In this document: in pieces, positions 2,452 through 63,325 of the stretch
Layout of the letters: each line of letters starts with the position of its first letter
Position numbering within the stretch: position 1 is the first letter of the stretch
Origin: Arion vulgaris
Lineage: Eukaryota; Mollusca; Gastropoda; Stylommatophora; Arionidae
Length of the DNA stretch: 64,000 nt
Assembly (NCBI GenBank): GCA_020796225.1
Contig: CM036765.1
Coordinates: 6,110,805 to 6,174,804 of the forward strand
Reading direction: 5' to 3'
The notes under the pieces: generated by a model
Database searches by the model: none
What the model was told of the DNA's origin: nothing
The model's input: the letters and a program-made list of their open reading frames with translations, nothing else
Made by a program: the position numbers and the translations under genes

Positions 2452-2822
2452 ATCATCATCATCAAATAGTTTGTCCTGAGTAGAACTTTGCCACCTTTAC
2501 AATTCTTTGGAATTTTCCTCTCTCACAAGCAAGATGTCCCGCCTTTGCAGCGGTCATGCTAAAATCATCAGCTACATCCTCAATCCATCTTCTCCGTGGA
2601 CTTCCTATTCTCCTCTTTGTCGGGATGCATCCTTCCAATATGGTGTTCTCCAGCCCTTTGTATCACTTTATATATCTAAAATATCTCAATTTTCTTATTT
2701 GTAGCATAAGCATGTTTTCTTTGTAAAATATCTCAATTTTCTTATTTGTAGCATAAGCATGTTTTCTTTGTAAAATATCTCAATTTTCTTATTTGTAGCA
2801 TAAGCATGTTTTCTTTGATTTT
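2452..2822 (-). mobile_element. LINE-A 3' end, left part, split by an insertion
   Basis: Read on the minus strand, this is the LINE-A tail: a TTTG-ATGATGATG end, the conserved GTCCTGAGTAGAACTTTGCC segment (plus strand), and the GRPRRRW-coding region. The element continues at 3515-3690 after a 692-bp inverted-repeat insertion (2823-3514). A 47-bp piece at its right side is triplicated (separate entry). The frames are broken. Confidence 0.85.
2677..2817 (-). repeat. 47-bp unit, three tandem copies inside LINE-A
   Basis: Units start at 2677, 2724 and 2771 and are almost identical. Each starts TAAAATATCTCAATTTTC and ends GCATGTTTTCTTTG. The unit is part of the LINE-A RT tail (the segment coding IKENxLMLQIRKRKLRYF on the minus strand), so this is an early-stage array seeded in a retrotransposon. 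Confidence 0.9.
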
Positions 2823-3514
2823 TAAAGGGTGGAGACTGCAGTAAAACTTGGAAAAATAGCTAAACACGTAAAAACATAGTACTATAGTTTTACAAAATAC
2901 ATAAACAGTAACGATAAACAGCAACGTTTCGACCAAAGGCCTTTATCAAGCAAACAATACAACAAGAATGACGAATTTCGAGGAACACTACAAATGAACG
3001 ATTACATGAAGAAACATTCAAACATATCTAATGAAAATCTGGGAATAAAAACGAATAACGAAATGAGTGCAACACGATGTTCCTCCGATGATCGCAGTCG
3101 ATTCGCCCTGGAGAACCGTTTTATTTCATTCTATGGCACCTTGCGACCTCTTGGACTCAACGCATTACATTCCTATGCTTCTTAGTACTGTCTTATCTCA
3201 TGCCTTGTAAACTATATGTGTATTTGCTCCATATATATAAGTTATTTATCCACTATATTGTTTATTGTTTCTCTTCTTTTCTACTTCCGGTTTTGTGTTG
3301 CACTCATTTCGTTATTCGTTTTTATTCCCAGATTTTCATTAGATAGGTTTGAATGTTTCTACACGTAATCGTCCATTTGTAGTGTTCCTCAAAATTCGTC
3401 ATTCTTATTGTATTGTTTGCTTGATAAAGGCCTTTTAGTCGAAACGTTACTGTTTATCGTCACTGTTTCTGTATTTTGTAAAACTATAGTACTTTGTTTT
3501 TACGTGTTTAGCTA
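2823..3514. mobile_element. FB copy 1: inverted-repeat element with hammerhead-like arms
   Basis: A 692-bp element has long imperfect inverted arms (about 2838-3080 and 3293-3514). The left arm contains AGCTAAACACG, ACTATAGTTTTACAAAATAC, CAACGTTTCGACC and CTTTATCAAGCAAAC. The right arm contains the complement of each. It is flanked by TTTCTTTGATTTT at 2810-2822 and 3515-3527, a 13-bp target duplication of LINE-A sequence. The right arm contains TTGATAAAGGCC (3421-3432) and GTCGAAAC (3438-3445), resembling a hammerhead ribozyme core. There is no coding potential. It is probably non-autonomous, perhaps related to Penelope-like elements. Confidence 0.8.
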
Positions 3515-3690
3515 TTTCTTTGATTTTGAGTTCTTTCTCGATAGATCTATTTGTTCTTTTCTCTGTCCATGATAAACGGAAGACTCTCCTGTAATACTTA
3601 TATTCAAAATCACAACAATGTTTTTCTACTGCCTTGCTAAATGTCCATACTTCACATCCTCTTCCATATCTACGACACTCAAATAAATAA
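3515..3690 (-). mobile_element. LINE-A, right part of the split copy
   Basis: This continues the copy at 2452-2822. On the plus strand TTTGATTTTGAGTTCTTTCTCG, then TCTCTGTCCATGATAAACGG and CTTATATTCAAAA are the complement of the KELKIKE, ISWTEKRT and FEYKCYRR segments. It is decayed. Confidence 0.8.
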
Positions 3691-3744
3691 TTACAAAATT
3701 CATTTAAGGCTAAACAGGCAGGAAAAGTCGTGTATCTAAAAAAA

Positions 3745-4012
3745 GGTATGTAGCCGAAGAATTAACATCAATGCACCGGGATTTACCACATCTGGCTCGG
3801 TCCCACTCCGCACAGTTAACACACCATCTGCCGAGAGTATTGCACACGGCACGAACTCCGTAGCTCCGACACCAATCCTAGTGGTCTCTGAAAATAATAC
3901 ACTCGTGAACAGAACGACGAGGTCCGGATTCGAAAACACGACCTTCGTAACGCAAGAAAAGGGATTGACCACATAGCCACAGAGACACCCACAGTCTTGA
4001 GTATATCCAGGA
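3745..4012 (-). mobile_element. SINE-1 copy (tRNA-derived)
   Basis: On the minus strand the head lies at 3940-4000. It carries box A-like TGGCTATGTGGTCAATC and box B-like TTTTCGAATCCGG. The body includes the family signature GGAGCTACGGAGTTCGTGC. The 3' part reads towards 3745 with the complement of CACCGGGATTTACC. Box A and B spacing fits a tRNA-type Pol III promoter. Head bases are mutated. Confidence 0.8.
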
Positions 4013-4024
4013 TCCTTTTCTTTT

Positions 4025-4279
4025 GTAGTCACACTGTTACCGGGTTATTGCCCTGTGTCGTGGTTTTCTGTTTTTGTAGTCACACTGTTACCGGGTTATT
4101 GCCCTGTGTCGTGGTTTTCTGTTTTTGTAGTCACACTGTTACCGGGTTATTGCCCTGTGTCGTGGTTTTCTGTTTTTGTAGTCACACTGTTACCGGGTTA
4201 TTGCCCTGTGTCGTGGTTTTCTGTTTTTGTAGTCACACTGTTACCGGGTTATTGCCCTGTGTCGTGGTTTTCTGTTTTT
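4025..4279. repeat. 51-bp tandem array, 5 copies
   Basis: Five nearly identical 51-bp units start GTAGTCACACTGTTACCGGG and end TTTTCTGTTTTT. The array lies exactly between the head of SINE-1 (3745-4012) and the end of a minus-strand LINE fragment (4280-4500). The minus-strand reading of the unit (NRKPRHRAITR) runs on from the LINE frame, so the array was probably seeded at the LINE end. The overlapping ORFs are products of the repeat. Confidence 0.9.
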
Positions 4280-4500
4280 GTCTTGCGCTGTTCTAGTGGC
4301 TTGGATGATTGTTATTTTTGCTCTTTGACAGAATTCTGCTATGCCATCTAACCATCTTTTTCGTGGTCTTCCTATTGCCTTTTTTTCTGACGTTCTGTTG
4401 TAGAAGACTATGTACACTGTTGAGTTTGGATGCATTCTTATTAAGTGGCTAAATCACTTCATTCTTGGTTTATCAATGTAATTCAATCACGGTTCTGATC
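4280..4500 (-). mobile_element. LINE-C tail fragment
   Basis: An open minus-strand stretch codes MHPNSTVYIVFYNRTSEKK, then AIGRPRKRWLDGIAEFCQRA and TRTAQDKNR. Upstream sequence adds a WFSHLIR-like motif. This FGHLxRM, GRPRKRWLDGI, AQDR series is the post-RT region of RTE-like LINEs. Only this end piece remains. Confidence 0.75.
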
Positions 4501-5110
4501 CAACTTTCGTTCTTATGCTGATGTTGTTGACTCTATATCCAGAATAGCAACTTTAAATGTTCAAACAAAGCAATAATCTTCCTATGAATGTCAGGAAGTT
4601 CTGGTAATAGCAACATTTTAAGTTGCTGTTGTTTGTTATTTGATCATTCTTATTGTGATATATAACTGATCTTTGCCAACAACCACCATACTTTACACTT
4701 CAGCTAATCGGCCCCTACGTATGTATAGTTCCATACACGTGTAGGATAGGCCTCATAATTTTGGCCTAAGACACTTAAGTAAACACTTAAATACTTAAGA
4801 CACTTATGTATTTTCTATTTTAAGCTCGCTGTATAAAAATTAATTAACTCATTCCATACCATTAACCACTATATTTAAGTTTCAATGTGAGCATTTTGCG
4901 ACATTTGCCCGTTCAACAAACTATCCAATAGAGCACTTTCTATCGTTTCGTACTAATCATTTCAAGTTTTGGATTGCGCTTAATATATTAAAATAAACAC
5001 ACACACACTTTACAAAAATTGCCAACTTATCAGGAGCACAGAAGACTGATATGACCGTCTCTTAAAGCCATGGTTTCAATAAAATCTTTATGACAATCAC
5101 TAACCTAAGG
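4501..5110. other. no gene; one imperfect hairpin
   Basis: AT-rich. An imperfect palindrome is centred near 4728 (CCTACGTATGTATAG against CATACACGTGTAGG). A run of ACTTAA-type words lies at 4767-4807. No coding region is supported. Confidence 0.4.
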
Positions 5111-5455: not shown

Positions 5456-7880
5456 ATGTTTTGAAACAAGATGTTACAGAAATATTCTTAGAACATCCTG
5501 GGCAGAGAAGAGAAATATTCTTAGGACATCCTGGGCAGAGAAGAGAAATATTCTTAGGACATCCTGGCAGAGAGAGAAATATTCTTAGAACATCCTGGGC
5601 AGAGAAGAGAAATATTCTTAGAACATCCTGGGCAGAGAAGAGAACAATTCTTAGAACATCCTGAGCAGAGAAGAGAACAATTCTTAGAATATCCTGGATA
5701 GAGAAGAGAACAATTCTTAGAGCATCCTGGAGAGAAGAGAAATATTCTTAGAACATCCTGGACAGAGAAGAGAAATATTCTTAGAACATCCTGGGCAGAG
5801 AAGAGAACAATTCTTAGAACATCCTGAGCAGAGAAGAGAACAATTCTTAGAATATCCTGGACAGAGAAGAGAAATATTCTTAGAACACCCTGAGCAGAGA
5901 AGAGAACAATTCTTAGAACATCCTGGGCAGAGAAGAGAACAATTCTTAGAACATCCTGGACAGAGAAGAGAACAATTCTTAGAACATCCTGGACAGAGAA
6001 GAGAAATATTCTTAGAACATCCTGGGCAGAGAAGAGAAATATTCTTAGAACATCTTGGACAGAGAAGAGAAATATTCTTAGAACATCCTGGGCAGAGAAG
6101 AGAACAATTCTTAGAACATCCTGGACAGAGAAGAGAAATATTCTTAGAACATCCTGGACAGAGAAGAGAACAATTCTTAGAACATCCTGGGCAGAAAGAG
6201 AAAATTCTTAGAACATCCTGGACAGAGAAGAGAAATATTCTTAGAACATCCTGAGCAGAGAAGAGAACAATTCTTAGAACATCCTGAGCAGAGAAGAGAA
6301 CAATTCTTAGAATATCCTGGACAGAGAAGAGAACAATTCTTAGAGCATCCTGGACAGAGAAGAGAAATATTCTTAGAACATCCTGGGCAGAGAAGAGAAC
6401 AATTCTTAGAACATCCTGAGCAGAGAAGAGAACAATTCTTAGAATATCCTGGACAGAGAAGAGAAATATTCTTAGAACATCTTGGACAGAGAAGAGAACA
6501 ATTCTTAGAATATCCTGGACAGAGAAGAGAAATATTCTTAGAACATCTTGGACAGAGAAGAGAACAATTCTTAGAATATCCTGGACAGAGAAGAGAAATA
6601 TTATTAGAATATCCTGGACAGAGAAGAGAAATATTCTTAGAACATCCTGGGCAGAGAAGAGAAATATTCTTAGAATATCCTGGACAGAGAAGAGAACAAT
6701 TCTTAGAACATCCTGGACAGAGAAGAGAAATATTCTTAGAATATCCTGGATAGAGAAGAGAACAATTCTTAGAACATCTTGGACAGAGAAGAGAACAATT
6801 CTTACAACATCCTGGGCAGAGAAGAGAACAATTCTTAGAACATCCTGGACAGAGAAGAGAAATATTCTTAGAACATCCTGGGCAGAGAAGAGAAATATTC
6901 TTAGAACATCCTGGACAGAGAAGAGAACAATTCTTAGAACATCCTGAGCAGAGAAGAGAACAATTCTTAGAATATCCTGGACAGAGAAGAGAAATATTCT
7001 TAGAACATCTTGGACAGAGAAGAGAACAATTCTTAGAATATCCTGGACAGAGAAGAGAAATATTATTAGAATATCCTGGACAGAGAAGAGAAATATTCTT
7101 AGAACATCCTGGGCAGAGAAGAGAAATATTCTTAGAATATCCTGGACAGAGAAGAGAACAATTCTTAGAACATCCTGGACAGAGAAGAGAAATATTCTTA
7201 GAATATCCTGGATAGAGAAGAGAACAATTCTTAGAACATCTTGGACAGAGAAGAGAACAATTCTTACAACATCCTGGGCAGAGAAGAGAACAATTCTTAG
7301 AACATCCTGGACAGAGAAGAGAAATATTCTTAGAACATCCTGGGCAGAGAAGAGAAATATTCTTAGAACATCCTGGACAGAGAAGAGAAAAATTCTTAGA
7401 ACATCCTGGGCAGAGAAGAGAAATATTCTTAGAACATCCTGGATAGAAAAGAGAAAATTCTTAGAACATCCTGGGCAGAGAAGAGAAAAATTCTTAGAAC
7501 ATCCTGGACAGAGAAGAGAAATATTCTTAGAATATCCTGGACAGACAATTGAAAAAGTCTTAGAACATCCTGGACAGACAATTGAAAAAGTCTTAGAACA
7601 TCCTGGACAGAGAAGAGAAAAAACAAAGACATCCTACAAGACTTGCATACGAGAAACATTGGCTCATAAATAACATCATGTCCAGGGAGATGTATTATTT
7701 TGGCAACGTTAAACGTCACAATAGTTTGGAGAGAACAATAATAGAAGACGTATTTCTTGGAGTACGAGACAGGGTACGACCAAAACTAAGGTGGCATCAG
7801 GACAACAAAGATACCTTGAATATGACGTTTGAGGAGGCAGGAGAACTTTTTAGAGACAGCAAGTTTTTTTCCGGCGGGCT
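5453..7880 (+). mobile_element. LINE-A-like RT tail hugely expanded by an internal array
   Basis: The LINE sequence before the array (TTTTGAAACAAGATGTTACAG) matches the FEYKCYRR-coding segment of other copies. The sequence after it codes SREMYYFGNVKRHNSLERTI, then RDRVRPKLRWHQDNKDTLNM and EEAGELFRDSKFF, the FGHxKRH / GRPxxRW / AGxLAxxRExF order of this LINE group. Between them one 33-bp piece is repeated about 65 times (5484-7620). Without the array this would be about 290 bp of LINE tail. Confidence 0.8.
5484..7620 (+). repeat. 33-bp minisatellite, about 65 copies
   Basis: The unit is AGAACATCCTGGACAGAGAA followed by GAGAAATATTCTT or GAGAACAATTCTT. It matches the LINE-A segment coding LRISWTEKRT (CGTATATCATGGACAGAG in the 48.5 kb copy) and reads ILRTSWTEKRT per unit. 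Main variants are GGACAG/GGGCAG/GAGCAG, AATATT/ACAATT, and AACATC/ATATCC. Blocks of variants recur: the series around 6480-6870 is largely repeated around 6970-7340, showing higher-order duplication of roughly 490 bp. Confidence 0.95.
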
Positions 7881-20695: not shown

Positions 20696-20751
20696 TGTAT
20701 AAAGACGAATTAATTTTAAAAACAACATAACGTGTTAAATCATGGTTATGT

Positions 20752-20995
20752 TATGTTACAAATTTAAGTTGAACACTAAGGAATATCAGTATTACGTTAC
20801 AAGTTAAGTTTAACACTAAGGAATATCAGTATTAGTTACAAGTTAAGTTTAACACTAAGGAATATCAGTATTATGTTACAAGTTAAGTTTAACACTAAGG
20901 AATATCAGTATTATGTTACAAGTTAAGTTTAACACTAAGGAATATCAGTATTATGTTACAAGTTAAGTTTAACAATAAGGAATATCAGTATTATG
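20752..20995 (+). repeat. 40-bp tandem array, about 6 copies, inside REP-6
   Basis: The unit is GTTACAAGTTAAGTTTAACA then CTAAGGAATATCAGTATTAT. Other REP-6 copies (25530, 43070, 49190) hold a single unit, so the array arose within this copy. Confidence 0.92.
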
Positions 20996-21599: not shown

Positions 21600-22145
21600 C
21601 ATATACAACTTGCATCATTATACAACTTGCATCATTATACAACTTGCATCAGTATACAACTTGCATCATTATACAACTTGCATCAGTATACAACTTGCAT
21701 CATTATACAACTTGCATCAGTATACAACTTGCATCAGTATACAACTTGCATCATTATACAACTTGCATCAGTATACAACTTGCATCAGTATACAACTTGC
21801 ATCATTATACAACTTGCATCAGTATACAACTTGCATCAGTATACAACTTCATCATATACAATTGCATCAGTATACAACTTGCATCAGTATACAACTTGCA
21901 TCAGTATACAACTTGCATCAGTATACAACTTGCATCAGTATACAACTTGCATCAGTATATAACTTGCATCAGTATACAACTTGCATCAGTATACAACTTG
22001 CATCAGTATACAACTTGCATCAGTATACAACTTGCATCAGTATACAACTTGCATCAGTATACAACTTGCATCAGTATACAACTTGCATCAGTATACAACT
22101 TGCATCAGTATACAACTTGCATCAGTATACAACTTGCATCATATA
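21600..22145 (+). repeat. 17-bp tandem array, block 1, about 32 copies
   Basis: The unit is CAACTTGCATCAGTATA, with a CATTATA variant more common at the left side and one damaged unit near 21845-21870. The left third alternates the CATTATA and CAGTATA forms; the right part is uniform CAGTATA. ORFs of up to 199 codons (HQYTTCIS-like) are only the repeat in three frames. Confidence 0.95.
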
Positions 22146-22199
22146 CGTAGTATGAACAACCTCGAATCGGGTAATACAAGGCCTGATTTCAGACCTTGC

Positions 22200-22512
22200 A
22201 CATTATACAACTGTATACAACTTGCATCAGTATACAACTTGCATCATTATACAACTTGCATCAGTATACAACTTGCATCAGTATACAACTTGCATCAGTA
22301 TACAACTTGCATCAGTATACAACTTGCATCATTATACAACTTGCATCAGTATACAACTGAATCGGTATACAACTTGCATCATTATACAACTTGCATCATT
22401 ATACAACTTGCATCAGTATACAACTTGCATCAGTATACAACTTGCATCAGTATACAACTTGCATCAGTATACAACTTGCATCAGTATACAACTTGCATCA
22501 GTATACGTAAGG
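22200..22512 (+). repeat. 17-bp tandem array, block 2, about 18 copies
   Basis: The same unit as block 1, after a 55-bp spacer with CTCGAATCGGGTAATACAAG. One unit is changed to CAACTGAATCGGTATA. The array is cut at its right edge by a SINE-4 insertion. Confidence 0.95.
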
Positions 22513-26090: not shown

Positions 26091-26640
26091 CGAAGGATTA
26101 ACTTCATTGTGCGGGGTTTCCGCATATGGCTCCGTCTCTGTCAGGCAGAAATGGCATGCCATCTTCCGAGAGTGTTGCACAAAGGACGAACTCCGTAGCT
26201 CCAGAAACAATCTTAGAGATCTTCTTGAAAAAAAATGTGAATGTGATTTGGTTCACATTTGAGCCCACAACCTTCAGAACGACATGAAAACGTCTCAACC
26301 ACTTCACCAACCACTTCACCAACCACTTCACCAACCACTTCACCAACCACTTCTCCAACCACTTCACCAACCACTTCACCAACCACTTCACCAACCACTT
26401 CACCAACCACTTCACCAACCACTTCACCAACCATTCACACTCAACTCACTTCACCAACCACTTCCCCAATCACAACCACTTCACCAACCACTTCACCAAC
26501 CACTTCACCAACCACTTCACCAACCCCTTCACCAACCACTTCACCAACCACTTCACCAACCACTTCACCAACCACTTCACCAACCACTTCACCAACCACT
26601 TCACCAACCACTTCGCCATTGACATACCCCAACCCCTTGT
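26085..26640 (-). mobile_element. SINE-1 copy with expanded head
   Basis: The body at 26090-26280 holds the usual words (ACTTCATTGTGCGGGG, GTTGCACAAAGGACGAACTC, CGTAGCTCCAG, TTTGAGCCCACAACC). The head should start GGCGAAGTGGTTGAGACG on the minus strand. Instead the box A word GGTGAAGTGGTT is repeated for 330 bp (26284-26620) before the true start near 26620-26640 (TGTCAATGGCGAAGTGG on the minus strand). Confidence 0.88.
26288..26620 (-). repeat. 12-bp array derived from the SINE-1 box A
   Basis: The unit on the plus strand is ACCACTTCACCA; on the minus strand it is TGGTGAAGTGGT, the core of the SINE-1 box A. About 27 units, with small damage at 26430-26475 and one CCCCTTC unit near 26525. 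The Thr-Ser-Pro, Leu-His-Gln-Pro and Val-Gly-Glu ORFs are products of the repeat. Confidence 0.95.
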
Positions 26641-27388: not shown

Positions 27389-28028
<640 letters not shown>

Positions 28029-36204: not shown

Positions 36205-39200
36205 CACTTCTTTAGCCTTTCATTATATACTTTTGTTCATTTAACAACTCATTTCCTTGTTCTTGAAATGTTCAACACAACTCAATGTTTCACTTTAGCC
36301 ATTCATTGATATACTGTGTGTTGAGTTAACACAACTCAATGTTTCACTTTAGCCTTTCATTGATATACTGTTTGTTCAGTTAACACAACTCAATGTTTCA
36401 CTTTAGCCATTCATTGATATACTGTGTGTTGAGTTAACACAACTCAATGTTTCACTTTAGCCTTTCACTGATATACTGTTTGTTCAGTTAACACAACTCA
36501 ATGTTTCACTGTAGCCTTTCATTGATATTCTGTTTGTTCAGTTAACACAGCTCAATGTTTCACTTTAGCCTTTCATTGATATACTGTTTGTTCAGTTAAC
36601 ACAACTCAATGTTTCACTTTAGCCTTTCATTGATATACTGTTTGTTCAGTTAACACAACTCAATGTTTCACTTTAGCCTTTCATTGATATACTGTTTGTT
36701 CAGTTAACACAACTCAATGTTTCACTTAGCCTTTCATTGATATACTGTTTGTTCAGTTAACACAACTCAATGTTTCACTTTAGCCTTTCATTGATATACT
36801 TTTTGTTCAGTTAACACAACTCAATGTTTCACTTTAGCCATTCATTAATATACTGTTTGTTCATTTAACACAACTCAATGTTTCACTTTAGCCTTTCATT
36901 GATATACTGTTTGTTCATTTAACACAACTCAATGTTTCACTTTAGCCAATCATTGATATACTGTTTGTTCATTTAACACAACTCAATGTTTCACTTTAGC
37001 CATTCATTGATATACTGTTTGTTCAGTTAACACAACTCAATGTTTCACTTTAGCCTTTCATTGATATACTGTTTGTTCAGTTAACACAACTCAATGTTTC
37101 ACTTTAGCCTTTCACTGATATACTGTTTGTTCAGTTAACACAACTCAATGTTTCACTGTAGCCTTTCATTGATATTCTGTTTGTTCAGTTAACACATCTC
37201 AATGTATCACTTTAGCCTTTCATTGATATACTGTTTGTTCAGTTAACACAACTCAATGTTTAACTTTAGCCATTCATTGATATACTGTTTGTTCAGTTAA
37301 CACAACTCAATGTTTCACTTTAGCCTTTCATTGATATACTGTTTGTTCAGTTAACACAGCTCAATGTTTCACTTTATCCGTTCATTGATATTCTGTTTGT
37401 TCAGTTAACACATCTCAATGTTTCACTTTAGCCTTTCATTGATATTCTGTTTGTTCAGTTAACACATCTCAATGTTTCACTTTAGCCTTTCAGTGATATA
37501 CTGTTTGTTCAATTATCACAGCTCAATGTTTCACTTTAGCCTTTCATTGATATACTGTTTGTTCAGTTAACACAACTCAATGTTTCACTTTAGCCATTCA
37601 TTGATATACTGTTTGTTCAGTTAACACAGCTCAATATTTCACTTTAGCCTTTCATTGATATTATGTTTGTTCAGTTAACACAACTCAATGTTTCACTTAG
37701 CCTTTCATTGATATACTGTTTGTTCAGTTAACACAGCTCAATGTTTCACTTTATCCGTTATTGATATTTGTTTGTTCATTTACCCAGTCAATGTTTCACT
37801 TAGCCTTTCATTGATATACTGTTTGTTCAGTTAACACAACTCAATGTTTCACTTTAGCCTTTCATTGATATACTGTTTGTTCAGTTAACACATCTCAATG
37901 TTTCACTTTAGCCTTTCATTGATATACTGTTTGTTCAGTTAACACAACTCAATGTTTCACTTTAGCCTTTCATTGATATACTGTTTGTTCAGTTAACACA
38001 GCTAAATGTTTCACTTTATCCGTTCATTGATATTCTGTTTGTTCAGTTAACACAGCTCAATGTTTCACTTAGCCTTTCATTGATATACTGTTTGTTCAGT
38101 TAACACAACTCAATGTTTCACTTTAGCCTTTCATTGATATACTGTTTGTTCAATTAACACAGCTCAATGTTTCACTTTATCAGTTCATTGATATTCTGTT
38201 TGTTCAGTTAACACAACTCAATGTTTCACTTTAGCCTTTCATTGATATACTGTTTGTTCAGTTAACACAGCTCAATGTTTCACTTTATCCGTTCATTGAT
38301 ATTCTGTTTGTTCAGTTAACACAACTCAATGTTTCACTTTAGCCTTTCATTGATATACTGTTTGTTCAGTTAACACAGCCAATTTTCACTTTATCCGTTC
38401 ATTGATATTCTGTTTGTTCAGTTAACACAGCTCAATGTTTTACTTAGCCTTTCATTGATATTATGTTTGTCAGTAACATCTCAATGTTTCTAGCCTTCAT
38501 TGATATACTGTTTGTTCAGTTAACACATCTCAATGTTTCACTTTAGCCTTTCATTGATATTCTGTTTGTTCAGTTAACACAATCTCAATGTTTCACTTTA
38601 CCTTTCATTGATTTTCTGTTTGTTCAGTTAACACAACTCAATGTTTCACTTTAGCCTTTCATTGATATACTGTTTGTTCAGTTAACACAACTCAATGTTT
38701 CACTTTAGCCTTTCATTGATATACTGTTTGTTCAGTTAACACAGCTCAATTTTTCACTTTATCCGTTCATTGATATTCTGTTTGTTCAGTTAACACAGCT
38801 CAATGTTTCACTTTAGCCTTTCATTGATATACTGTTTGTTCAGTTAACACAACTCAATGTTTCACTTTAGCCATTCATTGATATACTGTTTGTTCAGTTA
38901 ACACAGCTCAATATTTCACTTTAGCCTTTCATTGATATTATGTTTGTTCAGTTAACACAACTCAATGTTTCACTTTAGCCTTTCATTGATATACTGTTTG
39001 TTCAGTTAACACAGCTCAATGTTTCACTTTATCCGTTCATTGATATTCTGTTTGTTCAGTTAACACAGCTCAATGTTTCACTTTAGCCTTTCATTGATAT
39101 ACTGTTTGTTCAGTTAACACAACTCAATGTTTCACTTAGCCTTTCATTGATATACTGTTTGTTCAGTTAACACATCTCAATGTTTCACTTTAGCCTTTCA

Positions 39201-42200
39201 TTGATATACTGTTTGTTCAGTTAACACAACTCAATGTTTCACTAGCTTTTCATTATATACTGTTTGTTCAGTTAACACAACTCAATGTTTCACTTTAGCC
39301 TTTCATTGATATACTGTTTGTTCAATTAACACAGCTCAATGTTTCACTTTACCCAGTTCATTGATATTCTGTTTGTTCAGTTAACACAACTCAATGTTTC
39401 ACTTTAGCCTTTCATTGATATACTGTTTGTTCAGTTAACACAGCTCAATGTTTCACTTTATCCGTTCATTGATATTCTGTTTGTTCAGTTAACACAACTC
39501 AATGTTATTTAGCCTTTCATTGATATACTGTTTGTTCAGTTAACACAGCTCAATTTTTCACTTTATCCGTTCATTGATATTCTGTTTGTTCAGTTAACAC
39601 AGCTCAATGTTTTACTTTAGCCTTTCATTGATATTATGTTTGTTCAGTTAACACATCTCAATGTTTCACTTTAGCCTTTCATTGATATACTGTTTGTTCA
39701 GTTAACACATCTCAATGTTTCACTTTAGCCTTTCATTGATATTCTGTTTGTTCAGTTAACACATCTCAATGTTTCACTTTAGCCTTTCATTGATATACTG
39801 TTTGTTCAGTTAACACAACTCAATGTTTCACTTTAGCCTTTCATTGATATACTGTTTGTTCAGTTAACACAACTCAATGTTTCACTTTAGCCTTTCATTG
39901 ATATACTGTTTGTTCAGTTAACACAGCTCAATGTTTCACTTTATCCGTTCATTGATATTCTGTTTGTTCAGTTAACACATCTCAATGTTTCACTTTAGCC
40001 TTTCATTGATATACTGTTTGTTCAGTTAACACAGCTCAATGTTTCACTTTAGCCTTTCATTGATATACTGTTTGTTCAGTTAACACATCTCAATGTTTCA
40101 CTTTAGCCTTTCATTGATATACTGTTTGTTCAGTTAACACAGCTCAATGTTTCACTTTAGCCTTTCATTGATATACTGTTTGTTCAGTTAACACAGCTCA
40201 ATGTTTCACTTTAGCCTTTCATTGATATACTGTTTGTTCAGTTAACACAGCTCAATGTTTCACTTTAGCCTTTCATTGATATACTGTTTGTTCAGTTAAC
40301 ACAGCTCAATGTTTCACTTTAGCCTTTCATTGATATACTGTTGTTCAGTTAACACAATCAATGTTTCACTTTACTATCTTGATATACTGTTTGTTCAGTT
40401 AACACAGCTCAATGTTTCACTTTAGCCATTCATTGATATACTGTTTGTTCAGTTAACACAACTCAATGTTTCACTTTAGCAATTCATTGATATACTGTTT
40501 GTTCAGTTAACACAGCTCAATGTTTCACTTTAGCCTTTAATTGATATACTGTTTGTTCAGTTAACACAACTCAATGTTTCACTTTAGCCATTCATTGATA
40601 TACTGTTTGTTCAGTTAACACAGCTCAATGTTTCACTTTAGCCATTCATTGATATACTGTTTGTTCAGTTAACACATCTCAATGTTTCACTTTAGCCTTT
40701 CATTGATATACTGTTTGTTCAGTTAACACAGCTCAATGTTTCACTTTAGCCTTTCATTGATATACTGTTTGTTCAGTTAACACAGCTCAATGTTTCACTT
40801 TAGCCTTTCATTGATATACTGTTTGTTCAGTTAACACAGCTCAATGTTTCACTTTAGCCTTTCATTGATATACTGTTTGTTCAGTTAACACAACTCAATG
40901 TTTCACTTTTTCATATATACTGTTTGTCAGTAACACAGCTCAATGTTTCACTTTATCCGTTCATTGATATTCTGTTTGTTCAGTTAACACATCTCAATGT
41001 TTCACTTTAGCCTTTCATTGATATACTGTTTGTTCAGTTAACACAGCTCAATGTTTCACTTTAGCCTTTCATTGATATACTGTTTGTTCAGTTAGCACAG
41101 CTCAATGTTTCACTTTAGCCTTTCATTGATATACTGTTTGTTCAGTTAACACAGCTCAATGTTTCACTTTAGCCTTTCATTGATATACTGGTTCTTTAAC
41201 ACAGTCAAGTCATTTAGTTTCATTGATATACTGTTTGTTCAGTTAACACAGCTCAATGTTTCACTTTAGCCTTTCATTGATATACTGTTTGTTCAGTTAA
41301 CACAGCTCAATGTTTCACTTTAGCCTTTCATTGATATACTGTTTGTTCAGTTAACACAACTCAATGTTTCACTTTATCCTTTCATTGATATACTGTTTGT
41401 TCAGTTAACACAACTCAATGTTTCACTTTAGCCATTCATTGATATACTGTTTGTTCAGTTAACACAGCTCAATGTTTCACTTTAGCCATTCATTGATATA
41501 CTGTTTGTTCAGTTAACACAACTCAATGGTTCACTTACCCATTCATTGATACTGTTTGTTCAGTTAACACAACTCAATGTTTCACTTCAGCCATTCATTG
41601 ATATACTGTTTGTTCAGTTAACACAACTCAATGTTTCACTTTAGCCTTTCATTGATATACTGTTTGTTCATTAATTACAACTCAATGTTTCACTTTAGCC
41701 TTTCATTGATATACTGTTTGTTCAGTTAACACAGCTCAATGTTTCACTTTAGCCATTCATTGATATACTGTTTGTTCAGTTAACACAGCTCAATGTTTCA
41801 CTTTAGCCATTCATTGATATACTGTTTGTTCAGTTAACACAACTCAATGTTTCACTTTAGCCTTTCATTGATATACTGTTTGTTCAGTTAACACAACTCA
41901 ATGTTTCACTTTAGCCATTCATTGATATACTGTTTGTTCAGTTAACACAACTCAATGTATCACTTTAGCCTTCATGATATACTGTTTGTTCAGTTAACAC
42001 AGCTCAATGTTTCACTTTAGCCATTCATTGATATACTGTTTGTTCAGTTAACACAACTCAATGTTTCACTTTAGCCTTTCATTGATATACTGTTTGTTCA
42101 GTTAACACATCTCAATGTTTCACTTTAGCCATTCATTGATATACTGTTTGTTCAGTTAACACAGCTCAATGTTTCACTTTAGCCTTTCATTGATATACTG

Positions 42201-42450
42201 TTTGTTCAGTTAACACAGCTCAATGTTTCACTTTAGCCTTTCATTGATATACTGTTTGTTCAGTTAACACAGCTCAATGTTTCACTTTAGCCTTTCATTG
42301 ATATACTGTTTGTTCAGTTAACACAACTCAATGTTTCACTTTAGCCTTTCATTGATATACTGTTTGTTCAGTTAACACATCTCAATGTTTCACTTTACTT
42401 TTCATTGATATACTGTTTGTTCAGTTAACCTAATGTTTCACTTGTATTAT
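36205..42450 (+). repeat. 54-bp satellite array, about 115 units
   Basis: The unit is CACTTTAGCCTTTCATTGAT, ATACTGTTTGTTCAGTTAAC, ACAACTCAATGTTT. Units vary at a few sites: AACTC/AGCTC/ATCTC, GCCTTTC/GCCATTC/TCCGTTC, and ATACTG/ATTCTG/ATTATG. Short deletions occur (37760-37800, 38460-38500, 40340-40380, 40905-40935, 41190-41220). It degrades at both ends. No long ORF crosses it. It is cut off at 42453 by SINE-2. Confidence 0.97.
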
Positions 42451-46139: not shown

Positions 46140-46990
46140 TTTTAAAGCCGAAGGATTGACTTCATTGCACCGGGTTTTACCCCATATGGCTAGGTCCCTC
46201 TTCGCAGAAATGGCACAGCACCTGCCGAGAGTATTGCACAAAGCACGAACTCCGTAGCTCCAACAACAATCCTAGGGGTCTCTGGAAAAACTGCACTCGT
46301 AAACAGAACGGCGCGGTCCGTATTCGAACCCACGACTTTCGACTCACAAGGCAAAGGGCTTAACCACTTAGTCACAGAGACCTTCGACTCACAAGGCAAA
46401 GGGCTTAACCACTTAGTCACAGAGACCTTCGACTCACAAGGCAAAGGGCTTAACCACTTAGCCACAGAGACCTTCGACTCACAAGGCAAAGGGTTTAACC
46501 ACTTAGCCACAGAGACTTTCGACTCACAAGGCAAAGGGCTTAACCACTTAGCCACAGAGACCTTCGACTCACAAGGCAAAGGGCTTAACCACTTAGCCAC
46601 AGAGACCTTCGACTCACAAGGCAAAGGGTTTAACCACTTAGCCACAGAGACTTTCGACTCACAAGGCAAAGGGCTTAACCACTTAGCCACAGAGACCTTC
46701 GACTCACAAGGCAAAGGGTTTAACCACTTAGCCACAGAGACCTTCGACTCACAAGGCAAAGGGTTTAACCACTTAGCCATAGAGACCTTCGACTCACAAG
46801 GCAAAGGGCTTAACCACTTAGCCACAGAGACCTTCGACTCACAAGGCAAAGGGTTTAACCACTTAGCCACAGAGACCTTCGACTCACAAGGCAAAGGGTT
46901 TAACCACTTAGCCACAGAGACCTTCGACTCACAAGGCAAAGGGTTTAACCACTTAGCCATAGAGACCTTCGACTCACAAGGCAAAGGGCG
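46140..46990 (-). mobile_element. SINE-1 copy with 45-bp head array
   Basis: The body at 46142-46335 has GCCGAAGGATTGACTTCATT, GCACCGGGTTTTACCCCAT, GAGTATTGCACAAAGCACG, AACTCCGTAGCTCCAAC and the box B complement TATTCGAACCCACG. The head then repeats rightwards (46336-46990). The 277-codon minus-strand ORF is simply this array plus body. Confidence 0.93.
46336..46990 (-). repeat. 45-bp array of the SINE-1 head, about 14.5 copies
   Basis: The plus-strand unit is CCTTCGACTCACAAGGCAAA, GGGCTTAACCACTTAGCCAC, AGAGA. Its complement, GTGGCTAAGTGGTTAAGCCC, is the SINE box A. Variants GGGTTT, TAGTCAC and TAGCCAT let sub-blocks be followed; the TAGCCAT unit recurs four units apart (46741 and 46921). 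Confidence 0.96.
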
Positions 46991-47934: not shown

Positions 47935-48340
47935 TCAGCGCACAGCGAGGAGCGGAAACCTACAATTCTGATCCGGTCAGAGCGGATCAGATCAGATCTG
48001 GAGAAAACCGAGGTGGGCTGCAGTAATCAGCAATAAATAAATTGGCGTTTAAGGACAAAGACACGTATGTATGGTATCACATAAGCTAGCAGAGACACGT
48101 ATGTATGGTATCACATAAGCTAGCAGAGACACGTATGTATGGTATCACATAAGCTAGCAGAGACACGTATGTATGGTATCACATAAGCTAGCAGAGACAC
48201 GTATGTATGGTATCACATAAGCTAGCAGAGACACGTATGTATGGTATCACATAAGCAAGTAAAAATGAATAATAAAATGATAAAACTAACAAAAATACAA
48301 CATGTCGACTACAAGTCTTCTTCAGGGAACATACAAAAAC
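47935..48340 (+). repeat. REP-7 copy 2 with internal 34-bp array
   Basis: GCGGAAACCTACAATTC, GATCCGGTCAGAGCGGATC, GGAGAAAACCGAGGTGGGC, then the array, then ATGAATAATAAAATGAT and CTTCTTCAGGGAACATAC. The copy at 10162 has one unit in place of the array. Confidence 0.8.
48055..48256 (+). repeat. 34-bp tandem array, about 6 copies, inside REP-7
   Basis: The unit is AGAGACACGTATGTATGGTA, TCACATAAGCTAGC. Units are virtually identical. Confidence 0.95.
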
Positions 48341-50045: not shown

Positions 50046-50850
50046 GTTGTCTGTACTGCGCTGTTTCACAAGGTCAATGAGTTTGTCTCTACTGTGCTGT
50101 TTCACAAGACCAATGAGTTTGTCTGTACTGCGCTGTTTCACAAGGTCAATGAGTTTGTCTCTACTGTGCTGTTTCACAAGACCAATGAGTTTGTCTGTAC
50201 TGTTGCTGTTTCACAAGACCAATGAGTTTGTCTGTACTGTTGCTGTTTCACAAGACCAATGAGTTTGTCTGTACTGTTACTGTTTCACAAGACCAATGAG
50301 TTTGTCTCTACTGTGCTGTTTCACAAGACCAATGAGTTTGTCTGTACTGTTGCTGTTTCACAAGACCAATGAGTTTGTCTCTACTGTTGCTGTTTCACAA
50401 GGCCAATGAGTTTGTCTGTACTGTTGCTGTTTCAAAAGACCAATGAGTTTGTCTCTACTGTGCTGTTTCACAAGGCCAATGAGTTTGTCTCTACTGTGCT
50501 GTTTCACAAGACCAATGAGTTTGTCTGTACTGTGCTGTTTCACAAGGCCAATGAGTTTGTCTCTACTGTGCTGTTTCACAAGGCCAATGAGTTTGTCTCT
50601 ACTGTGCTGTTTCACAAGGCCAATGAGTGTGTCTCTACTGTGCTGTTTCACAAGACCAATGAGTTTGTCTCTACTGTGCTGTTTCACAAGGCCAATGAGT
50701 TTGTCTCTACTGTGCTGTTTCACAAGGCCAATGAGTGTGTCTCTACTGTGCTGTTTCACAAGGACAATGAGTTTGTCTCTACTGTGCTGTTTCACAAGAC
50801 CAATGAGTTTGTCTCTACTGTGCTGTTTCACAAGACCAATGAGTTTGTCT
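50046..50850 (+). repeat. 36/37-bp tandem array, about 22 copies
   Basis: The unit is TGCTGTTTCACAAGGCCAAT, GAGTTTGTCTCTACTG, with a 37-bp form (CTGTTGCTG). Variants AAGACC/AAGGCC/AAGGTC, GTCTC/GTCTG and GAGTGTG. Sub-blocks recur (the GAGTGTG unit appears twice, near 50625 and 50735, three units apart). Long ORFs on both strands are products of the repeat. Confidence 0.95.
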
Positions 50851-51004
50851 CATTAAATCATATTTGGGAGAGTTTTGAAGCATCTGCTCTATTGTCTGCG
50901 TGTCTGACTTTATTTACACATGGTATGAAAGTCTCTCTAGCGTAGAGGCTATTCCCTCGCCTCTCTTTCCAAAACTACTCTGTTTGCTCCCTCGTGGAGC
51001 CATC

Positions 51005-52304: not shown

Positions 52305-52378
52305 AGCCGGCTGGCTCGGTTGGCTAGAGCGTCGTGCTAATAAAGCGAATGTCGTGGGTTCGATCCCCATACTTTCCA
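52305..52378 (+). pseudogene. tRNA-Ile(AAT)-like sequence
   Basis: A 74-nt segment follows the animal tRNA-Ile plan: GCCGGCTGGCTCGGTTGGC (D-arm region with box A), TAGAGCGTCGTGCTAATAAA (anticodon loop CTAATAA, anticodon AAT) and GGGTTCGATCCCC (box B and T-arm). The 5' and 3' acceptor strands (AGCCGGC and ACTTTCC) do not pair and A replaces G before TAC, so it is not a working tRNA. Its last 40 nt are shared with the repeated SINE heads that follow. Confidence 0.8.
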
Positions 52379-53020
52379 AATATCTGGGGGTGGGTGGTTA
52401 CTCTGTATCTAAGTGGTTAAGCTCTTCTCTAGCGAGTCGAAGGTCGTGAGTTCGATCCCCATACTTTCCAAATATCTGGGGAAGTGGTGGGTTACTCTGT
52501 ATCTAAGTGGTTAGCTCTTCTCTAGCGAGTCGAATGTCGTGGGTCTGATCCCCATACTTTCCAAATATCTGGGGGAAGTGGGTGGGTTACTCTGTGTCTA
52601 AGTGGTTAAGCCCTTCTCTAGCGAGTCGAATGTCGTGAGTTGATCACCATACTTTCCAAATATCTGAGGAAGTGGTGGTTACTCTGTATCTAAGTGGTTA
52701 AGTTTCTCTAGCGAGTCGAATGTCGTGAGTTCGATCGCCATACTTTCCAAATATCTGAGGGAAGTGGTGGGTTACTCTGTATCTAAGTGGTTAAGCTCTT
52801 CTCTAGCGAGTCGAATGTCGTGGGTTCGATCCCCATACTTTCCAAATATCTGGGGGAAGTGGGTGGGTTACTCTGTGTCTAAGTGGTTAAGCCCTTCTCT
52901 AGCGAGTCGAATGTCGTGAGTTCGATCGCCATACTTTCCAAATATCTGAGGGAAGTGGTGGGTTACTCTGTATCTAAGTGGTTAAGCTCTTCTCTAGCGA
53001 GTCGAATGTCGTGGGTTCAT
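52379..53020 (+). repeat. 96-bp tandem array of SINE-1 heads, about 7 copies
   Basis: Each unit has ATCTGGGGGAAGTGGGTGGG, TTACTCTGTATCTAAGTGGT (box A), TAAGCTCTTCTCTAGCGAGT, CGAATGTCGTGGGTTCGATC (box B), CCCATACTTTCCAA. Both promoter boxes are kept in most units. Two forms alternate (TATCTAAG...GCTCTTC and TGTCTAAG...GCCCTTC). The unit pair at 52660-52855 is repeated at 52855-53020, so growth was by dimers. Confidence 0.95.
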
Positions 53021-55729: not shown

Positions 55730-56465
55730 ACAAACAAACATTGACAACATTACACCAGAAGAAGTAACAGATTGTCCTGCTGTATGGGTCAGAAACATGG
55801 AAAACCAGAAGAAGTAACAGATTGTTCTGCTGTATGGGTCGAAATATGGAAACCTGAAGAAGTAACAGATTGTTCTGCTGTATGGGTCAGAAACATGGAA
55901 AACCAGAAGAAGTAACAGATTGTTCTGCTGTATGGGTCAGAAATATGGAAAACCAGAAGAAGTAACAGATTGTTCTGCTGTATGGGTCAGAAATATGGAA
56001 AACCAGAAGAAGTAACAGATTGTTCTGCTGTATGGGTCAGAAACATGGAAAACGGCTAAAATAAAAACGCATAAATTGAAAACATTCATCAACTGCTGTC
56101 TGCACAGAATAGAGGGACTGAGATGGTATGATAGGGTCACAACTGAGGAACTTATGGAGAGAACAAGACAGATTCCAGTGAACCAAGAGGTTAACAAAGA
56201 CGCTTTCGCTGGATAGGACACACTTTGTAAAAACCGGAGGGGAATGTAACAAGAAGAGTCCTTTTCTGGAACCATAGGAACAGCAAAAGAAGGGAAGGTC
56301 GAGAAATACATGGAGGCGAGATTTGGAGGCAGAGATCAACAATATAAAAAAAAGCTGGAGGGAGCTGCAGGAGATAGCTAGAGAAAGGAAGACTTGGCAT
56401 GAGTTGGTTGAGTGCCTATGCTCCAATCCGGGTTAAAAATGCAGAGAGAGAGAAAGAGAGAGAGA
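55730..56465 (+). mobile_element. LINE-C RT tail with internal array
   Basis: After the array (55757-56050): LLYGSETWKTAKIKTHKLKT, FINCCLHRIEGLRWYDRVTT, EELMERTRQIPVNQEVNK, then out of frame GGRDQQYKKKLEGAAGDS-type text in place of EAEIxxxxxSWRELQEIA, and a GAGAGAGAGAG run at 56450-56470. Typical RTE-like LINE end with YGSETW, FINxCLRxILxxxW and ExLWERTxQxP. Confidence 0.87.
55757..56050 (+). repeat. about 51-bp array, 6 copies, of the LINE YGSETW region
   Basis: The unit is GAAGAAGTAACAGATTGTTC, TGCTGTATGGGTCAGAAACA, TGGAAAACCAG. GTTCTGCTGTATGGGTCAGA codes the VLLYGSE motif. One unit has lost bases (GGGTCGAAATATGGAAACC, near 55840). Confidence 0.93.
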
Positions 56466-56489: not shown

Positions 56490-57345
56490 TGACAAAATGG
56501 ATGGAGGCATTGCAAGTTTGAACGATGACAAAATTGTTTATAGTGTGACTACCATTGCAGAAGAAATTGATGACGATGAAGGATCAGTTTTTAACCAAAA
56601 ACTTACAACTAGCCACCCAGATGCAGAAACAATGTTATCAAAGTGCATCCATCAACTGGTTTGTTTAACCAAAATCTACAACTAGCCACTGTGAAGCAGA
56701 AACAATGTTATCAAAGTGCATCAACTGGTTTGCTTAACCAAAATCTACAACTAGCCACTGTGAAGCAGAAACAATGTTATCAAAGTGCATCAACTGGTTT
56801 GCTTAACCAAAATCTACAACTAGCCACTGTGAAGAAACATGTTATCAAGTACAACTGTTTTTACAATCTAATACCAACAGAAACAATGTTATCAAGTGCA
56901 TCAACTGGTTGTACCAAATCTACAATAGCACTTACGAAACAATGTTATCAATGCATCAACTGGTTTGAAAATCTACAACTAGCCACTGTGAAGCAGAAAC
57001 AATGTTATCAAAGTGCATCAACTGGTTTGCTTAACCAAAATCTACAACTAGCCACTGTGAAGCAGAAACAATGTTATCAAAGTGCATCAACTGGTTTGCT
57101 TAACCAAAATCTACAACTAGCCACTGTGAAGCAGAAACAATGTTATCAAAGTGCATCAACTGGTTTGTTTAACCAAAACCTACAACTAGCCACTGTGAAG
57201 CAGAAACAATGTTATCAAAGTGCATCAACTGGTTTGAAATGCAATAGGAGACAAATTCAACATAGATCCTACTTCTGCGTAGAAACAGAACATAGCCGTG
57301 CAGAAAGCTCAAGCCTTAAAGACACAAGGAGACGATATATTATTT
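56490..57345 (+). mobile_element. Tigger/pogo-like transposase C-terminal remnant
   Basis: The plus-strand frame MDGGIASLNDDKIVYSVTTI, AEEIDDDEGSVFNQKLTTSH and PDAETMLSKC resembles the acidic C-terminal tail of Tigger/pogo (CENP-B-like) transposases, where an H-x-A-E-x-x-x-x-L-x-x-x-x-x-W-x-E-Q block follows. The repeat unit codes EAETMLSKCINWFA. After the array, SKCINWFEMQ, ETNST and ILLLRRNRT match the WxEQQxExxxTxLLLLxRLRD end. No DDE core is present. Domain choice is from motif memory only. Confidence 0.6.
56627..57238 (+). repeat. 69-bp array, about 9 copies, in the Tigger-like tail
   Basis: The unit is GTTTGCTTAACCAAAATCTA, CAACTAGCCACTGTGAAGCA, GAAACAATGTTATCAAAGTG, CATCAACTG; one length is 69 bp (23 codons). 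Two central units (56835-56960) are damaged by deletions. The 236-codon ORF is a product of the repeat in a frame different from the transposase-like one. Confidence 0.93.
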
Positions 57346-57364
57346 TCAAGTAACGTAATGTTCT

Positions 57365-57560: not shown

Positions 57561-57654
57561 TCGACCCAGTAGACAATACATCTAAATAACATTGTCGTTT
57601 GTGGCACATTGTATGTTTATAGTCTGCACGTTGACCAAACCACGTTGACTCTTT

Positions 57655-57780
57655 GCTTCATGTTGAGTGATTAGACCATTATCATTGCACTTTGGTGAGT
57701 AACCATGTGTGTTCCGATCTATTTCTTACACAAGAAGATGTCAGTGGCAGTGCACGAACTATGTAGCACCGGCTAGGTTT
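57655..57780 (-). mobile_element. SINE-3 fragment
   Basis: TTGCACTTTGGTGAGTAACC, ATGTGTGTTCCGATC, GTGCACGAACTATGTAGCAC. Cut off after CGGCTAGG. Confidence 0.75.
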
Positions 57781-57784
57781 CCTT

Positions 57785-62040: not shown

Positions 62041-62047
62041 AGAAACA

Positions 62048-62300
62048 CTATGGAGGTTTCTGTGGCTAACTTGTTAAGCCGTTGCCTTGCGTTCCAAATG
62101 TTGTGTTTGTCCAATCCGTATCGCACATTTCTGTTCACAAGTATATTTTTTCTTTTAAAAAACACTTAAGATTGTTGACTGAGCTACAGAGTTCGTGATT
62201 TGTGCGATACTCTCTGCAGGTACGTGTCATATCAGCAAGTAATGTCTGGTAAAAAAAAAACAACATGGTTTAAAGAAGACAATCCTTCGTCTTTAGATGC
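62048..62300 (+). mobile_element. SINE-1 copy
   Basis: Head TTTCTGTGGCTAACTTGTTA and AGCCGTTGCCTTGCG (box A region), degraded box B GTTGTGTTTGTCC, body GAGCTACAGAGTTCGTGATT, TGTGCGATACTCTCTGCAGG. A SINE-2 follows at once in the same orientation. Confidence 0.8.
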
Positions 62301-62324
62301 TTTAGATCGCCAGTGTATTACCGG

Positions 62325-62555
62325 TACTGCAAGGGAGCCAAGAATAATAACACTGAGACCTACAAGGCCTGTCGTTAAGGGCGACTGAGGTAAGTGCCTA
62401 TGGAAGATATCCTAGTAAAAAAAAACGTCGCAGAAATCGGATATGCTGGCATACTTGTAGGCGCATAACTGGCACAACGTACAATCGTTCTTAGACTCAG
62501 AACACATGCAAGAGTGGTTCAACACGGGGTCAATATGGAGCGATCGAAGCAGAGT
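62325..62555 (+). mobile_element. SINE-2 copy
   Basis: GCAAGGGAGCCAAGAATAAT, ACCTACAAGGCCTGTCG, GGCATACTTGTAGGCGCATA, ACTGGCACAACGTACAATCG, CAATATGGAGCGATCGAAGC. Confidence 0.85.
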
Positions 62556-62619
62556 CTTTATATATACGAGGGATGTTTGGAAAGTAATACACCATATTTT
62601 TGTTTCCCAGCGATTAAAT

Positions 62620-62815
62620 TCGAAGAAATGACTTTATTGCATCGGATTTGACACCATATGGTTCGGTCACATTCCGTAGAAATGGCACACTATCTGCCTA
62701 AGTATTGCACAAAGTATGAACTCAATAGCTCCAGCAAACATCCAATGGGTCTCTGGAAAAAACTGTACTCATGAAGAAAGCGGCGCTGCCCGGATTCGAA
62801 ACCAGCGATTACCTG
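62620..62815 (-). mobile_element. SINE-1 copy, 5'-truncated
   Basis: GAAATGACTTTATTGCATCG, TTTGACACCATATGGTTCGG, GAACTCAATAGCTCCAGC, CCGGATTCGAAACCAGCG (box B complement). Confidence 0.82.
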
Positions 62816-62871
62816 CGGCAGAAGGAAACATTAACTTTTCAAACTTCATATTTGGAACGTCTTTATTGTAT

Positions 62872-63325
62872 GTACTTCTTCTTCTTCAAACCCTCCACAT
62901 CGATCACTTATTAAACCCTCCACATCGATCACTTATTAAACCCCTCCACATCGATCACTTATTAAACCCCTCCACATCGATCACTTATTAAACACCTCCA
63001 CATCGATCACTTATTAAACCCCTCCACATCGATCACTTATTAAACCCCTACACATCGATCACTTATTAAACCCCTCCACATCGATCACTTATTAAACCCC
63101 TCTTTGTGATTTGTATGTGATTTCATCCTAAGCGCGACTCTATATTATGCCACCTATGCGCCACAAGTAGTCCAGCACATCAGATTTCTGCGCCGCTTTT
63201 TATTTACTAGAGTAGCTTTCCTAGGCTCCTAATTCAGTTGCCTCTTACGACCTGCCTTGTTGGTTGCAGTGTTACTATTCTTTGTTGTCTTTTTGAGTCC
63301 CAGCAACACATGGGCGCATTGCTGG
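62872..63325 (-). mobile_element. SINE-2 copy with 26-bp internal array
   Basis: CTTCTTCTTCTTC tail complement, then the CACATCGATCACTTATT segment repeated, then CTCTTTGTGATTTGTATGTG, CGCCACAAGTAGTCCAGCAC, TTTTATTTACTAGAGTAGC, TACGACCTGCCTTGTTGG and GAGTCCCAGCAACACATGGGC. Confidence 0.9.
62885..63095 (-). repeat. 26-bp tandem array, 8 copies, inside SINE-2
   Basis: The unit is AAACCCCTCCACATCGATCA, CTTATT. It matches the SINE-2 segment normally present once (CGCTCCATATCGATCACTTGTTAACC). Confidence 0.95.

What the first reader, a model, noticed from the sequence alone, without database searches (positions are those of the whole stretch)
2677..63095. Window-wide pattern: tandem arrays nucleate inside transposable elements
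Units of 12, 26, 33, 34, 40, 45, 47, 51, 69 and 96 bp can each be traced to one internal segment of a LINE, SINE, DNA transposon or dispersed repeat that is single-copy in sister elements; the other 51-bp array (4025) is a probable further case. Only the 17-, 36-, 38- and 54-bp arrays and the microsatellites lack an evident source. Such a density suggests a genome with a very active tandem-duplication process, perhaps replication slippage or rolling-circle re-insertion acting on short TE segments.
Basis: partly seen in the sequence, partly recalled or inferred. Interest (0 to 1): 0.8.

Follow-up and report, generated by a model that had tools for sequence, protein, structure and literature searches.

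The report
Minisatellites grown from old transposon DNA
Most of the many short tandem-repeat blocks in this animal-type DNA grew in place from pieces of old mobile elements, but in a genome so full of repeats this is what chance would give; the more unusual point is that one spot, the tail end of a retrotransposon, has expanded again and again.

Summary
The arrays are real. Ten of 15 trace to a segment that is single-copy in sister elements: 12, 26, 33, 34, 36, 40, 45, 47, 51 (at 4021) and 69 bp. The host is an unnamed 1.52-Gb genome in which arrays cover 14.0% (bootstrap 10.3-17.8%) of 20 random 10-kb stretches; the window has 22%. Best explanation: ordinary in-situ tandem duplication after insertion, for some units between short direct repeats, then local turnover. 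It is uneven within elements: of 20 LINE 3' ends picked by coding similarity alone, 8 (7 distinct of 19) carry 32/33-bp arrays, against about 4% expected per 75 bp; copies found otherwise carry 44-, 45-, 51- and 52-bp arrays from the same segment. TE-derived minisatellites and hot spots are known; this is a clear new example.

The parts
2677..2817 (-). 47-bp array, 3.0 perfect copies; unit from the coding end of a LINE copy whose match to sisters stops about 5 bp beyond the unit
   Evidence: (39 of 39 sisters single)
4021..4281 (-). 51-bp array, 5.1 perfect copies, at the 3' end of a LINE (LINE runs on the minus strand)
4282..4534 (-). 3' coding end of that LINE, 90-92% identical to the sisters listed
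   Evidence: RVT_1-like stretch in sister L030 (below the Pfam cut-off)
5478..7622 (+). 33-bp array, about 65 copies; unit from a LINE coding segment
14734..14999 (+). 38-bp array; unit straddles a fold-back element and another dispersed element
20751..20995 (+). 40-bp array; 6 sisters have direct repeats of 4-10 bp at the unit borders (median 6)
21602..22506 (+). 17-bp array, source not traced
26296..26618 (+). 12-bp array in the 3' part of a SINE
36274..42429 (+). 54-bp array, about 115 copies, just after a LINE 3' coding end; a decayed unit-like stretch lies before it; source unit not found elsewhere
46334..46989 (+). 45-bp array in the tRNA-like 3' part of the SINE
48059..48256 (+). 34-bp array, 5.8 perfect copies
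50047..50851 (+). 36-bp array inside a dispersed element
   Evidence: (39 of 39 sisters single)
52346..53018 (+). 95-bp array; unit joins SINE 3' part to other sequence; 16-bp motif at both ends
55754..56053 (+). 50-bp array straddling the start of the match to a LINE (read as its 5' truncation)
56591..57239 (+). 69-bp array inside a dispersed element
   Evidence: 38 of 38 sisters single
62891..63102 (+). 26-bp array near the left end of a dispersed element

Best explanation
The window shows a genome-wide minisatellite load. Short stretches (median period 35 bp) of whatever DNA is there, mostly old dispersed elements because these fill the genome, are duplicated in tandem in place, some of them between short direct repeats, and the arrays then grow and are homogenised locally by slippage or unequal exchange. 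Formation is not specific to mobile elements, but within an element some spots expand far more often than others; the clearest is the 3' end of one LINE family. Shown within the sample: in-situ origin, closer likeness of units within than between arrays, lack of enrichment over the repeat background, the LINE hot spot. Inferred: the molecular step (replication slippage or unequal exchange) and that it still goes on.
For: In situ: one unit joined to both flanks matches sisters straight through for 47, 69, 36 and 40, 34, 26. Array units are more alike than the elements they sit in: LINE 90-91% in the sisters vs five 51-bp units 100%; 84-87% vs 100% for 47; 74-78% vs 94% for 36; 79-86% vs 92-99% for 69. 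No enrichment. Load everywhere: 20 of 20 random stretches hold at least one array, mean 14.0%. Hot spot: 8 of 20 LINE 3' ends (7 distinct of 19) hold arrays vs 4.1% expected per 75 bp, P 6e-6. Repeated origin: periods 32, 33, 44/45, 51, 52, and unit distances 0.083 within vs 0.108 between 15 arrays, 0 of 1000 permutations as low. Direct repeats in single-copy sisters: TTTTGT at spacing 51 in 8 of 12, TGTCGT at spacing 32 in 4 of 12; TTTTGTC at 51 is the longest direct repeat of the consensus segment; median 6.5 bp for 51 and 6 for 40 against a null mean of 3.3 and 3.2% at 6 or more.
Against: Direct repeats at unit borders are near the null for 47, 45 (SINE), 34, 26, and for 33 and 44/45 in the LINE (medians 3-4; 36% of random sites reach 4), so slippage between direct repeats cannot be the only start. 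Arrays sit at edges of similarity more than simulated arrays do (39/55 vs 195/384, p 0.006), which would favour a start tied to element ends; the effect is weak in arrays with at least 95% matches (15/23, p 0.20) and in the window alone (7/11, p 0.54), strong in older ones (24/32, p 0.009), so decay may explain it. Of the 15 LINE arrays, L035, L042 and L005 have units about as far from each other as from other arrays, and in L007 they are farther (0.151 vs 0.130). No tree of the LINE copies was built. The hot-spot segment was looked at because the window has an array there. The database is 264 kb, so only families of thousands of copies count as repeats, and shuffled units of 28-40 bp already match in 60 of 87 cases.
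Confidence: 0.75

Rival explanations
1. Arrays are carried and spread by the mobile elements: some LINE source copies already had a tandem 3' end and passed it on, as in elements with built-in repeats.
For: Many LINE copies carry arrays at the same place, several with the same period.
Against: 12 of 20 sisters are single-copy; array-bearing copies differ in period and mostly in unit variants; the window's five units are identical while its LINE is about 9% from sisters.
Confidence: 0.15
2. The first duplication happens at insertion, at element ends or 5'-truncation points, through the insertion machinery, and slippage only enlarges it.
For: Units at or across ends: 47, 50, 38, 51, 26, SINE 3' parts; edge test 39/55 vs 195/384; in two elements the inner part has no array (SINE 5' body 0 of 31 places, right part of the 26-bp element 0 of 41) while the end part has some (5 of 12 places = 3 arrays; 5 of 40 places = 2 arrays, chosen after the fact).
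Against: 36, 40, 34 and 69 lie inside elements; edge effect weak in young arrays; unit identity points to growth long after insertion.
Confidence: 0.25
3. One reading: a process that acts especially on mobile elements, or rolling-circle re-insertion of excised segments.
For: High density of arrays traced to elements.
Against: No enrichment over random segments; flanks continue the source element in register.
Confidence: 0.08
4. Assembly artefact: long-read errors or mis-assembly made or stretched arrays.
For: The unplaced contig C3143, which repeats window 55640-57900, differs from it by many small gaps; part of the 69-bp array (56848-56967) looks degraded.
Against: Two contigs with the same flank (C23 and unplaced C2584) show the same five-unit 32-bp array; arrays occur in 20 of 20 random stretches.
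Confidence: 0.05

Closest known systems
TE-derived minisatellites of the human genome (Ahmed and Liang 2012, PMC3389668; abstract, section 9 part 1, sections 12 and 13 read)
   Same: Arrays from internal TE segments, local growth after insertion, hot spots in some elements, few with flanking direct repeats
   Different: Human: 23% of minisatellites TE-derived, 0.32% of the genome as stated there; here arrays of all origins cover 14% of sampled DNA (laxer criteria) and the hot spot is a LINE 3' end
Haber and Louis model of minisatellite origin (known only through the review PMC6947457, passages read)
   Same: Short direct repeats of 5-10 bp bounding the future unit: 51 and 40 bp here, suggestive for 32 and 36
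   Different: 47, 45, 34, 33 and 26 bp show no such repeats above chance
Helentron elements with central satellite-like repeats in oyster (PMC7492417, passages read)
   Same: Dispersed short arrays tied to mobile elements
   Different: There the array is a built-in part of the element; here 12 of 20 sisters are single-copy
FoTeR non-LTR retrotransposons with variable-number tandem repeats in Fusarium (PMC12857005, passages read)
   Same: Non-LTR elements whose copies differ in tandem repeats
   Different: There mostly upstream of the coding part, some near the 3' end; here at the very 3' end
Gmr9/GmOgre minisatellites of soybean (PMC3305785, abstract read)
   Same: Variable minisatellite beside the 3' coding end of a retrotransposon family
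   Different: LTR element; here a LINE, and a minority of the copies looked at

Membership tests
TE-derived minisatellite | Unit is homologous to a dispersed element | tested here: met
   12, 26, 33, 34, 36, 40, 45, 47, 51, 69 bp
TE-derived minisatellite | Unit single-copy in sister elements | tested here: met
   39/39, 38/38, 39/39 and 12/20
TE-derived minisatellite | Holds for the 54- and 17-bp arrays | tested here: inconclusive
   54: 0 of 39 other places hold the unit; 17 not searched genome-wide
Arrays enriched in mobile elements | Overlap above element coverage | tested here: not met
   within a 264-kb sample and without a curated element library
Haber-Louis direct-repeat origin | Direct repeats bound the unit in single-copy sisters | tested here: inconclusive
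   above null for 51 and 40, suggestive for 32 and 36; not for 47, 45, 34, 33, 26
Element with built-in tandem repeats (Helentron type) | Array present in most copies of the family | tested here: not met
   12 of 20 LINE 3' ends single; Helentron ends not looked for
LINE (non-LTR retrotransposon) | Reverse transcriptase in the element | tested here: inconclusive
   RVT_1 E 1.6e-4 on L030:1898-2263 but 21.9 bits, under the 29.6 cut-off; clade not tested; GAA-type tail in 11 of 12 single-unit copies; LINE coding motifs recognised from recall

The most novel reading that the evidence does not exclude
The 3' end of this LINE is a built-in seed of minisatellites: a segment with several nested direct repeats (and a possible hairpin) that expands anew in about a third of its copies, so that an active LINE continually plants tandem arrays across the genome; more generally, arrays start at element ends and junctions.
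Probability: 0.25. Interest if true: 0.6.

Novelty: new member of a known kind. Interest (0 to 1): 0.38.

Why it matters
One LINE end with many copies (5685 and 6547 first-look candidates, not confirmed copies) offers many parallel trials of tandem duplication from the same starting sequence: the outcome (period, border, copy number) can be read against the direct repeats present in each copy. That makes the long-standing question of how minisatellites start testable by counting. It also warns that 'arrays lie in transposons' means little in a genome full of transposons unless it is set against background.

Tried and rejected
A border test on perfect tandem runs was dropped as evidence: sub-runs inside long arrays make the overhang meaningless. 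A first, cruder unit-detection run (nearest unit in the own array for 45.5 of 74) was replaced. The spanning test with 120-bp flanks found single-copy spans for 13 of 109 arrays against 365 of 1200 random positions, both flanks hit for 49 of 109 against 724 of 1200, any flank for 93 of 109 against 1012 of 1200; it is biased against arrays near element ends. RNA hairpin as a reverse-transcriptase signal: the window unit folds no better than shuffles (z -0.47) and the 12-copy consensus hairpin of 10 pairs has no pair changed on both sides, so no claim. Allele comparison with C3143 was given up because that contig is noisy. Pfam on eight window ORFs gave nothing useful. Rfam found no family at gathering scores. 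By the filter of PMC3504011 (units 7-50 bp, at least 95%; passages read), coverage here is only 2.1% against 0.35-10.3% in the libraries of that paper, so the load is not a record by that measure.
Full report
What is there. In 20 random 10-kb stretches arrays with period 10 or more cover 14.0% of bases, bootstrap range 10.3-17.8%, with values from 0.5 to 31.6% per stretch and at least one array in 20 of 20; the window has 22.3%. Median period in sample and window together is 35 bp. So the window is a rich piece of a genome that is rich in every stretch sampled. Two sampled stretches, L020 and L021, contain 7,525 N in all. With units of 7-50 bp and at least 95% matches the sample figure is 2.1%.

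Where the units come from. In the 264 kb of window plus sample, places outside TRF arrays that match most of the unit with flank number 23 for 26 bp, 11 for 47, 10 for 33, 9 for 45, 6 for 40, 5 for 12, 4 for 34 and 2 for 36 (E up to 5, so some are weak). Genome-wide, a query of one unit joined to both flanks is matched unbroken through the unit in 39 of 39 other places for 47 bp, one of them in the window itself at 1129-1296, in 38 of 38 for 69 bp (the window and the duplicate contig C3143 left out; one of the 38, on C7, has an array elsewhere in the element) and in 39 of 39 for 36 bp. These searches score 40 candidates each. At an element's end, where there is no outer flank, one reported row does not prove one unit: L032 and C12:27325869 hold 32-bp arrays. 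Three units are not internal segments: the 50-bp unit starts 12-24 bases before the point where all 38 sister LINEs begin to match; the 38-bp unit contains the beginning of a right-hand element (13 of 13 right-hand matches start inside it) next to a fold-back element on the left; the 95-bp unit joins the tRNA-like 3' part of the SINE to other sequence, with a 16-bp motif at window 52346, 52812 and 53003. The 54-bp array, 6.2 kb long, follows a LINE coding end, but none of 39 other places holds its unit. The 17-bp array was not traced.

Is it more than chance? In 264 kb with arrays masked, usable 100-bp flanks of arrays match dispersed DNA in 91 of 180 cases and random 100-bp pieces in 553 of 1000 (p 0.26); units of 28-120 bp have a dispersed relative in 44 of 69 cases, random segments in 400 of 600 (p 0.69), shuffled units in 80 of 207. 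By size: 28-40 bp 28/29 vs 512/600, 41-60 bp 10/23 vs 359/600, 61-120 bp 6/17 vs 230/600, no band significant; shuffled units match in 60/87, 14/69 and 0/51, so only the longer bands are specific. A test including shorter units gave 11 of 18 window and 46 of 88 sample arrays against 576 and 589 of 1000 random segments. So arrays are in dispersed elements about as often as any DNA here. The limit is that a 264-kb database reveals only families of thousands of copies, and no curated element library was at hand.

The LINE 3' end. The 51-bp array at 4021 is the 3' end of a LINE that runs on the minus strand. To avoid picking copies that have arrays, I took the 20 best-scoring of the 39 other places of a search made with the coding part alone and fetched their 3' ends. 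Twelve have one unit, 11 of them with a GAA-type tail; eight have 32/33-bp arrays of 2 to at least 16 copies; two of the eight, L042 and L044, look like the same locus on two contigs. Seven of 19 compares with 4.1% expected per 75 bp from the array density of the sample (P 6e-6); the segment was chosen because the window has an array there, so the P value is indicative. Seven further copies found by a query that contained the array have periods of 51, 51, 45, 51, 44/52, 52 and 45. Units within an array are closer (0.083) than between arrays (0.108) over 15 arrays and 151 units, with 0 of 1000 label permutations as low; in L035, L042 and L005 the two distances are about equal and in L007 the inner one is larger. 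In the single-copy sisters the longest direct repeat of the consensus segment is TTTTGTC at spacing 51; TTTTGT at spacing 51 is present in 8 of 12 sisters and TGTCGT at spacing 32 in 4 of 12.

How it starts. With the same search freedom for a random control (null mean 3.3 bp; 36% reach 4, 12% reach 5, 3.2% reach 6), the median direct repeat at unit borders in single-copy sisters is 6.5 for 51, 6 for 40, 5 for 36 (two sisters), 4.5 for 32, 4 for 33 and for 44/45 in the LINE, and 3 for 47, 45 in the SINE, 34 and 26. Exchange or slippage between direct repeats is therefore supported for 51 and 40, possible for 32 and 36, and not shown for the rest, much as Ahmed and Liang found for human arrays (PMC3389668; section 9 part 1, sections 12 and 13 read). 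Arrays lie at edges of similarity more often than arrays simulated at random places (39 of 55 vs 195 of 384, p 0.006), but this comes mainly from older arrays (24 of 32; young ones 15 of 23, p 0.20), so a start at insertion junctions is open, not shown. The elements are older than the arrays look: 90-91% to the sisters against 100% among the 51-bp units, 84-87% against 100% for 47 bp, 74-78% against 94% for 36 bp. Turnover within arrays can keep old arrays alike, so this dates the last homogenisation rather than the first duplication.

What is known. TE-derived minisatellites, hot spots within elements and the direct-repeat model are established (PMC3389668; review PMC6947457, passages; soybean PMC3305785, abstract; oyster PMC7492417, passages), and variable tandem repeats in copies of a non-LTR element are described in Fusarium (PMC12857005, passages), mostly upstream of its coding part. 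My searches (listings seen, 20 of 115, 11 of 11, 11 of 11 and 12 of 15 papers) listed no paper on a LINE 3'-terminal hot spot of this kind, but the library lacks most subscription journals. Verdict: a real and dense phenomenon, of a known kind, whose stated cause (a process aimed at transposons) is not supported; the LINE 3' end is the part worth following.

Noticed in passing
L007:1893-2155; also C3:17270642, C26:5872413, C25:23174688: A second spot in the same LINE, about 65-70 bp in the coding part, is duplicated in 3 of the 39 other places and forms a 3.9-copy array in L007.
   Followed up: partly
window 49272-49610: A 339-bp near-perfect palindrome (92%), with smaller inverted repeats at 14601-14722 and 25826-25884.
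   Followed up: no
window 32450-35021, minus strand: Open-frame pieces of 158, 260 and 276 aa that look like a decayed DNA transposase (likeness recalled; no Pfam support).
   Followed up: no
L028:3394-4125: A 77-bp array from the same dispersed element, and the same end of it, as the 26-bp array.
   Followed up: partly
window 27393-27953: Long compound CTAT/TCTG/CGTC microsatellite block, directly before coding-like sequence.
   Followed up: no
L053 (C3143:1-2200): Unplaced contig that repeats window 55640-57900 with many small gaps; unplaced contigs may be unpolished second copies.
   Followed up: partly
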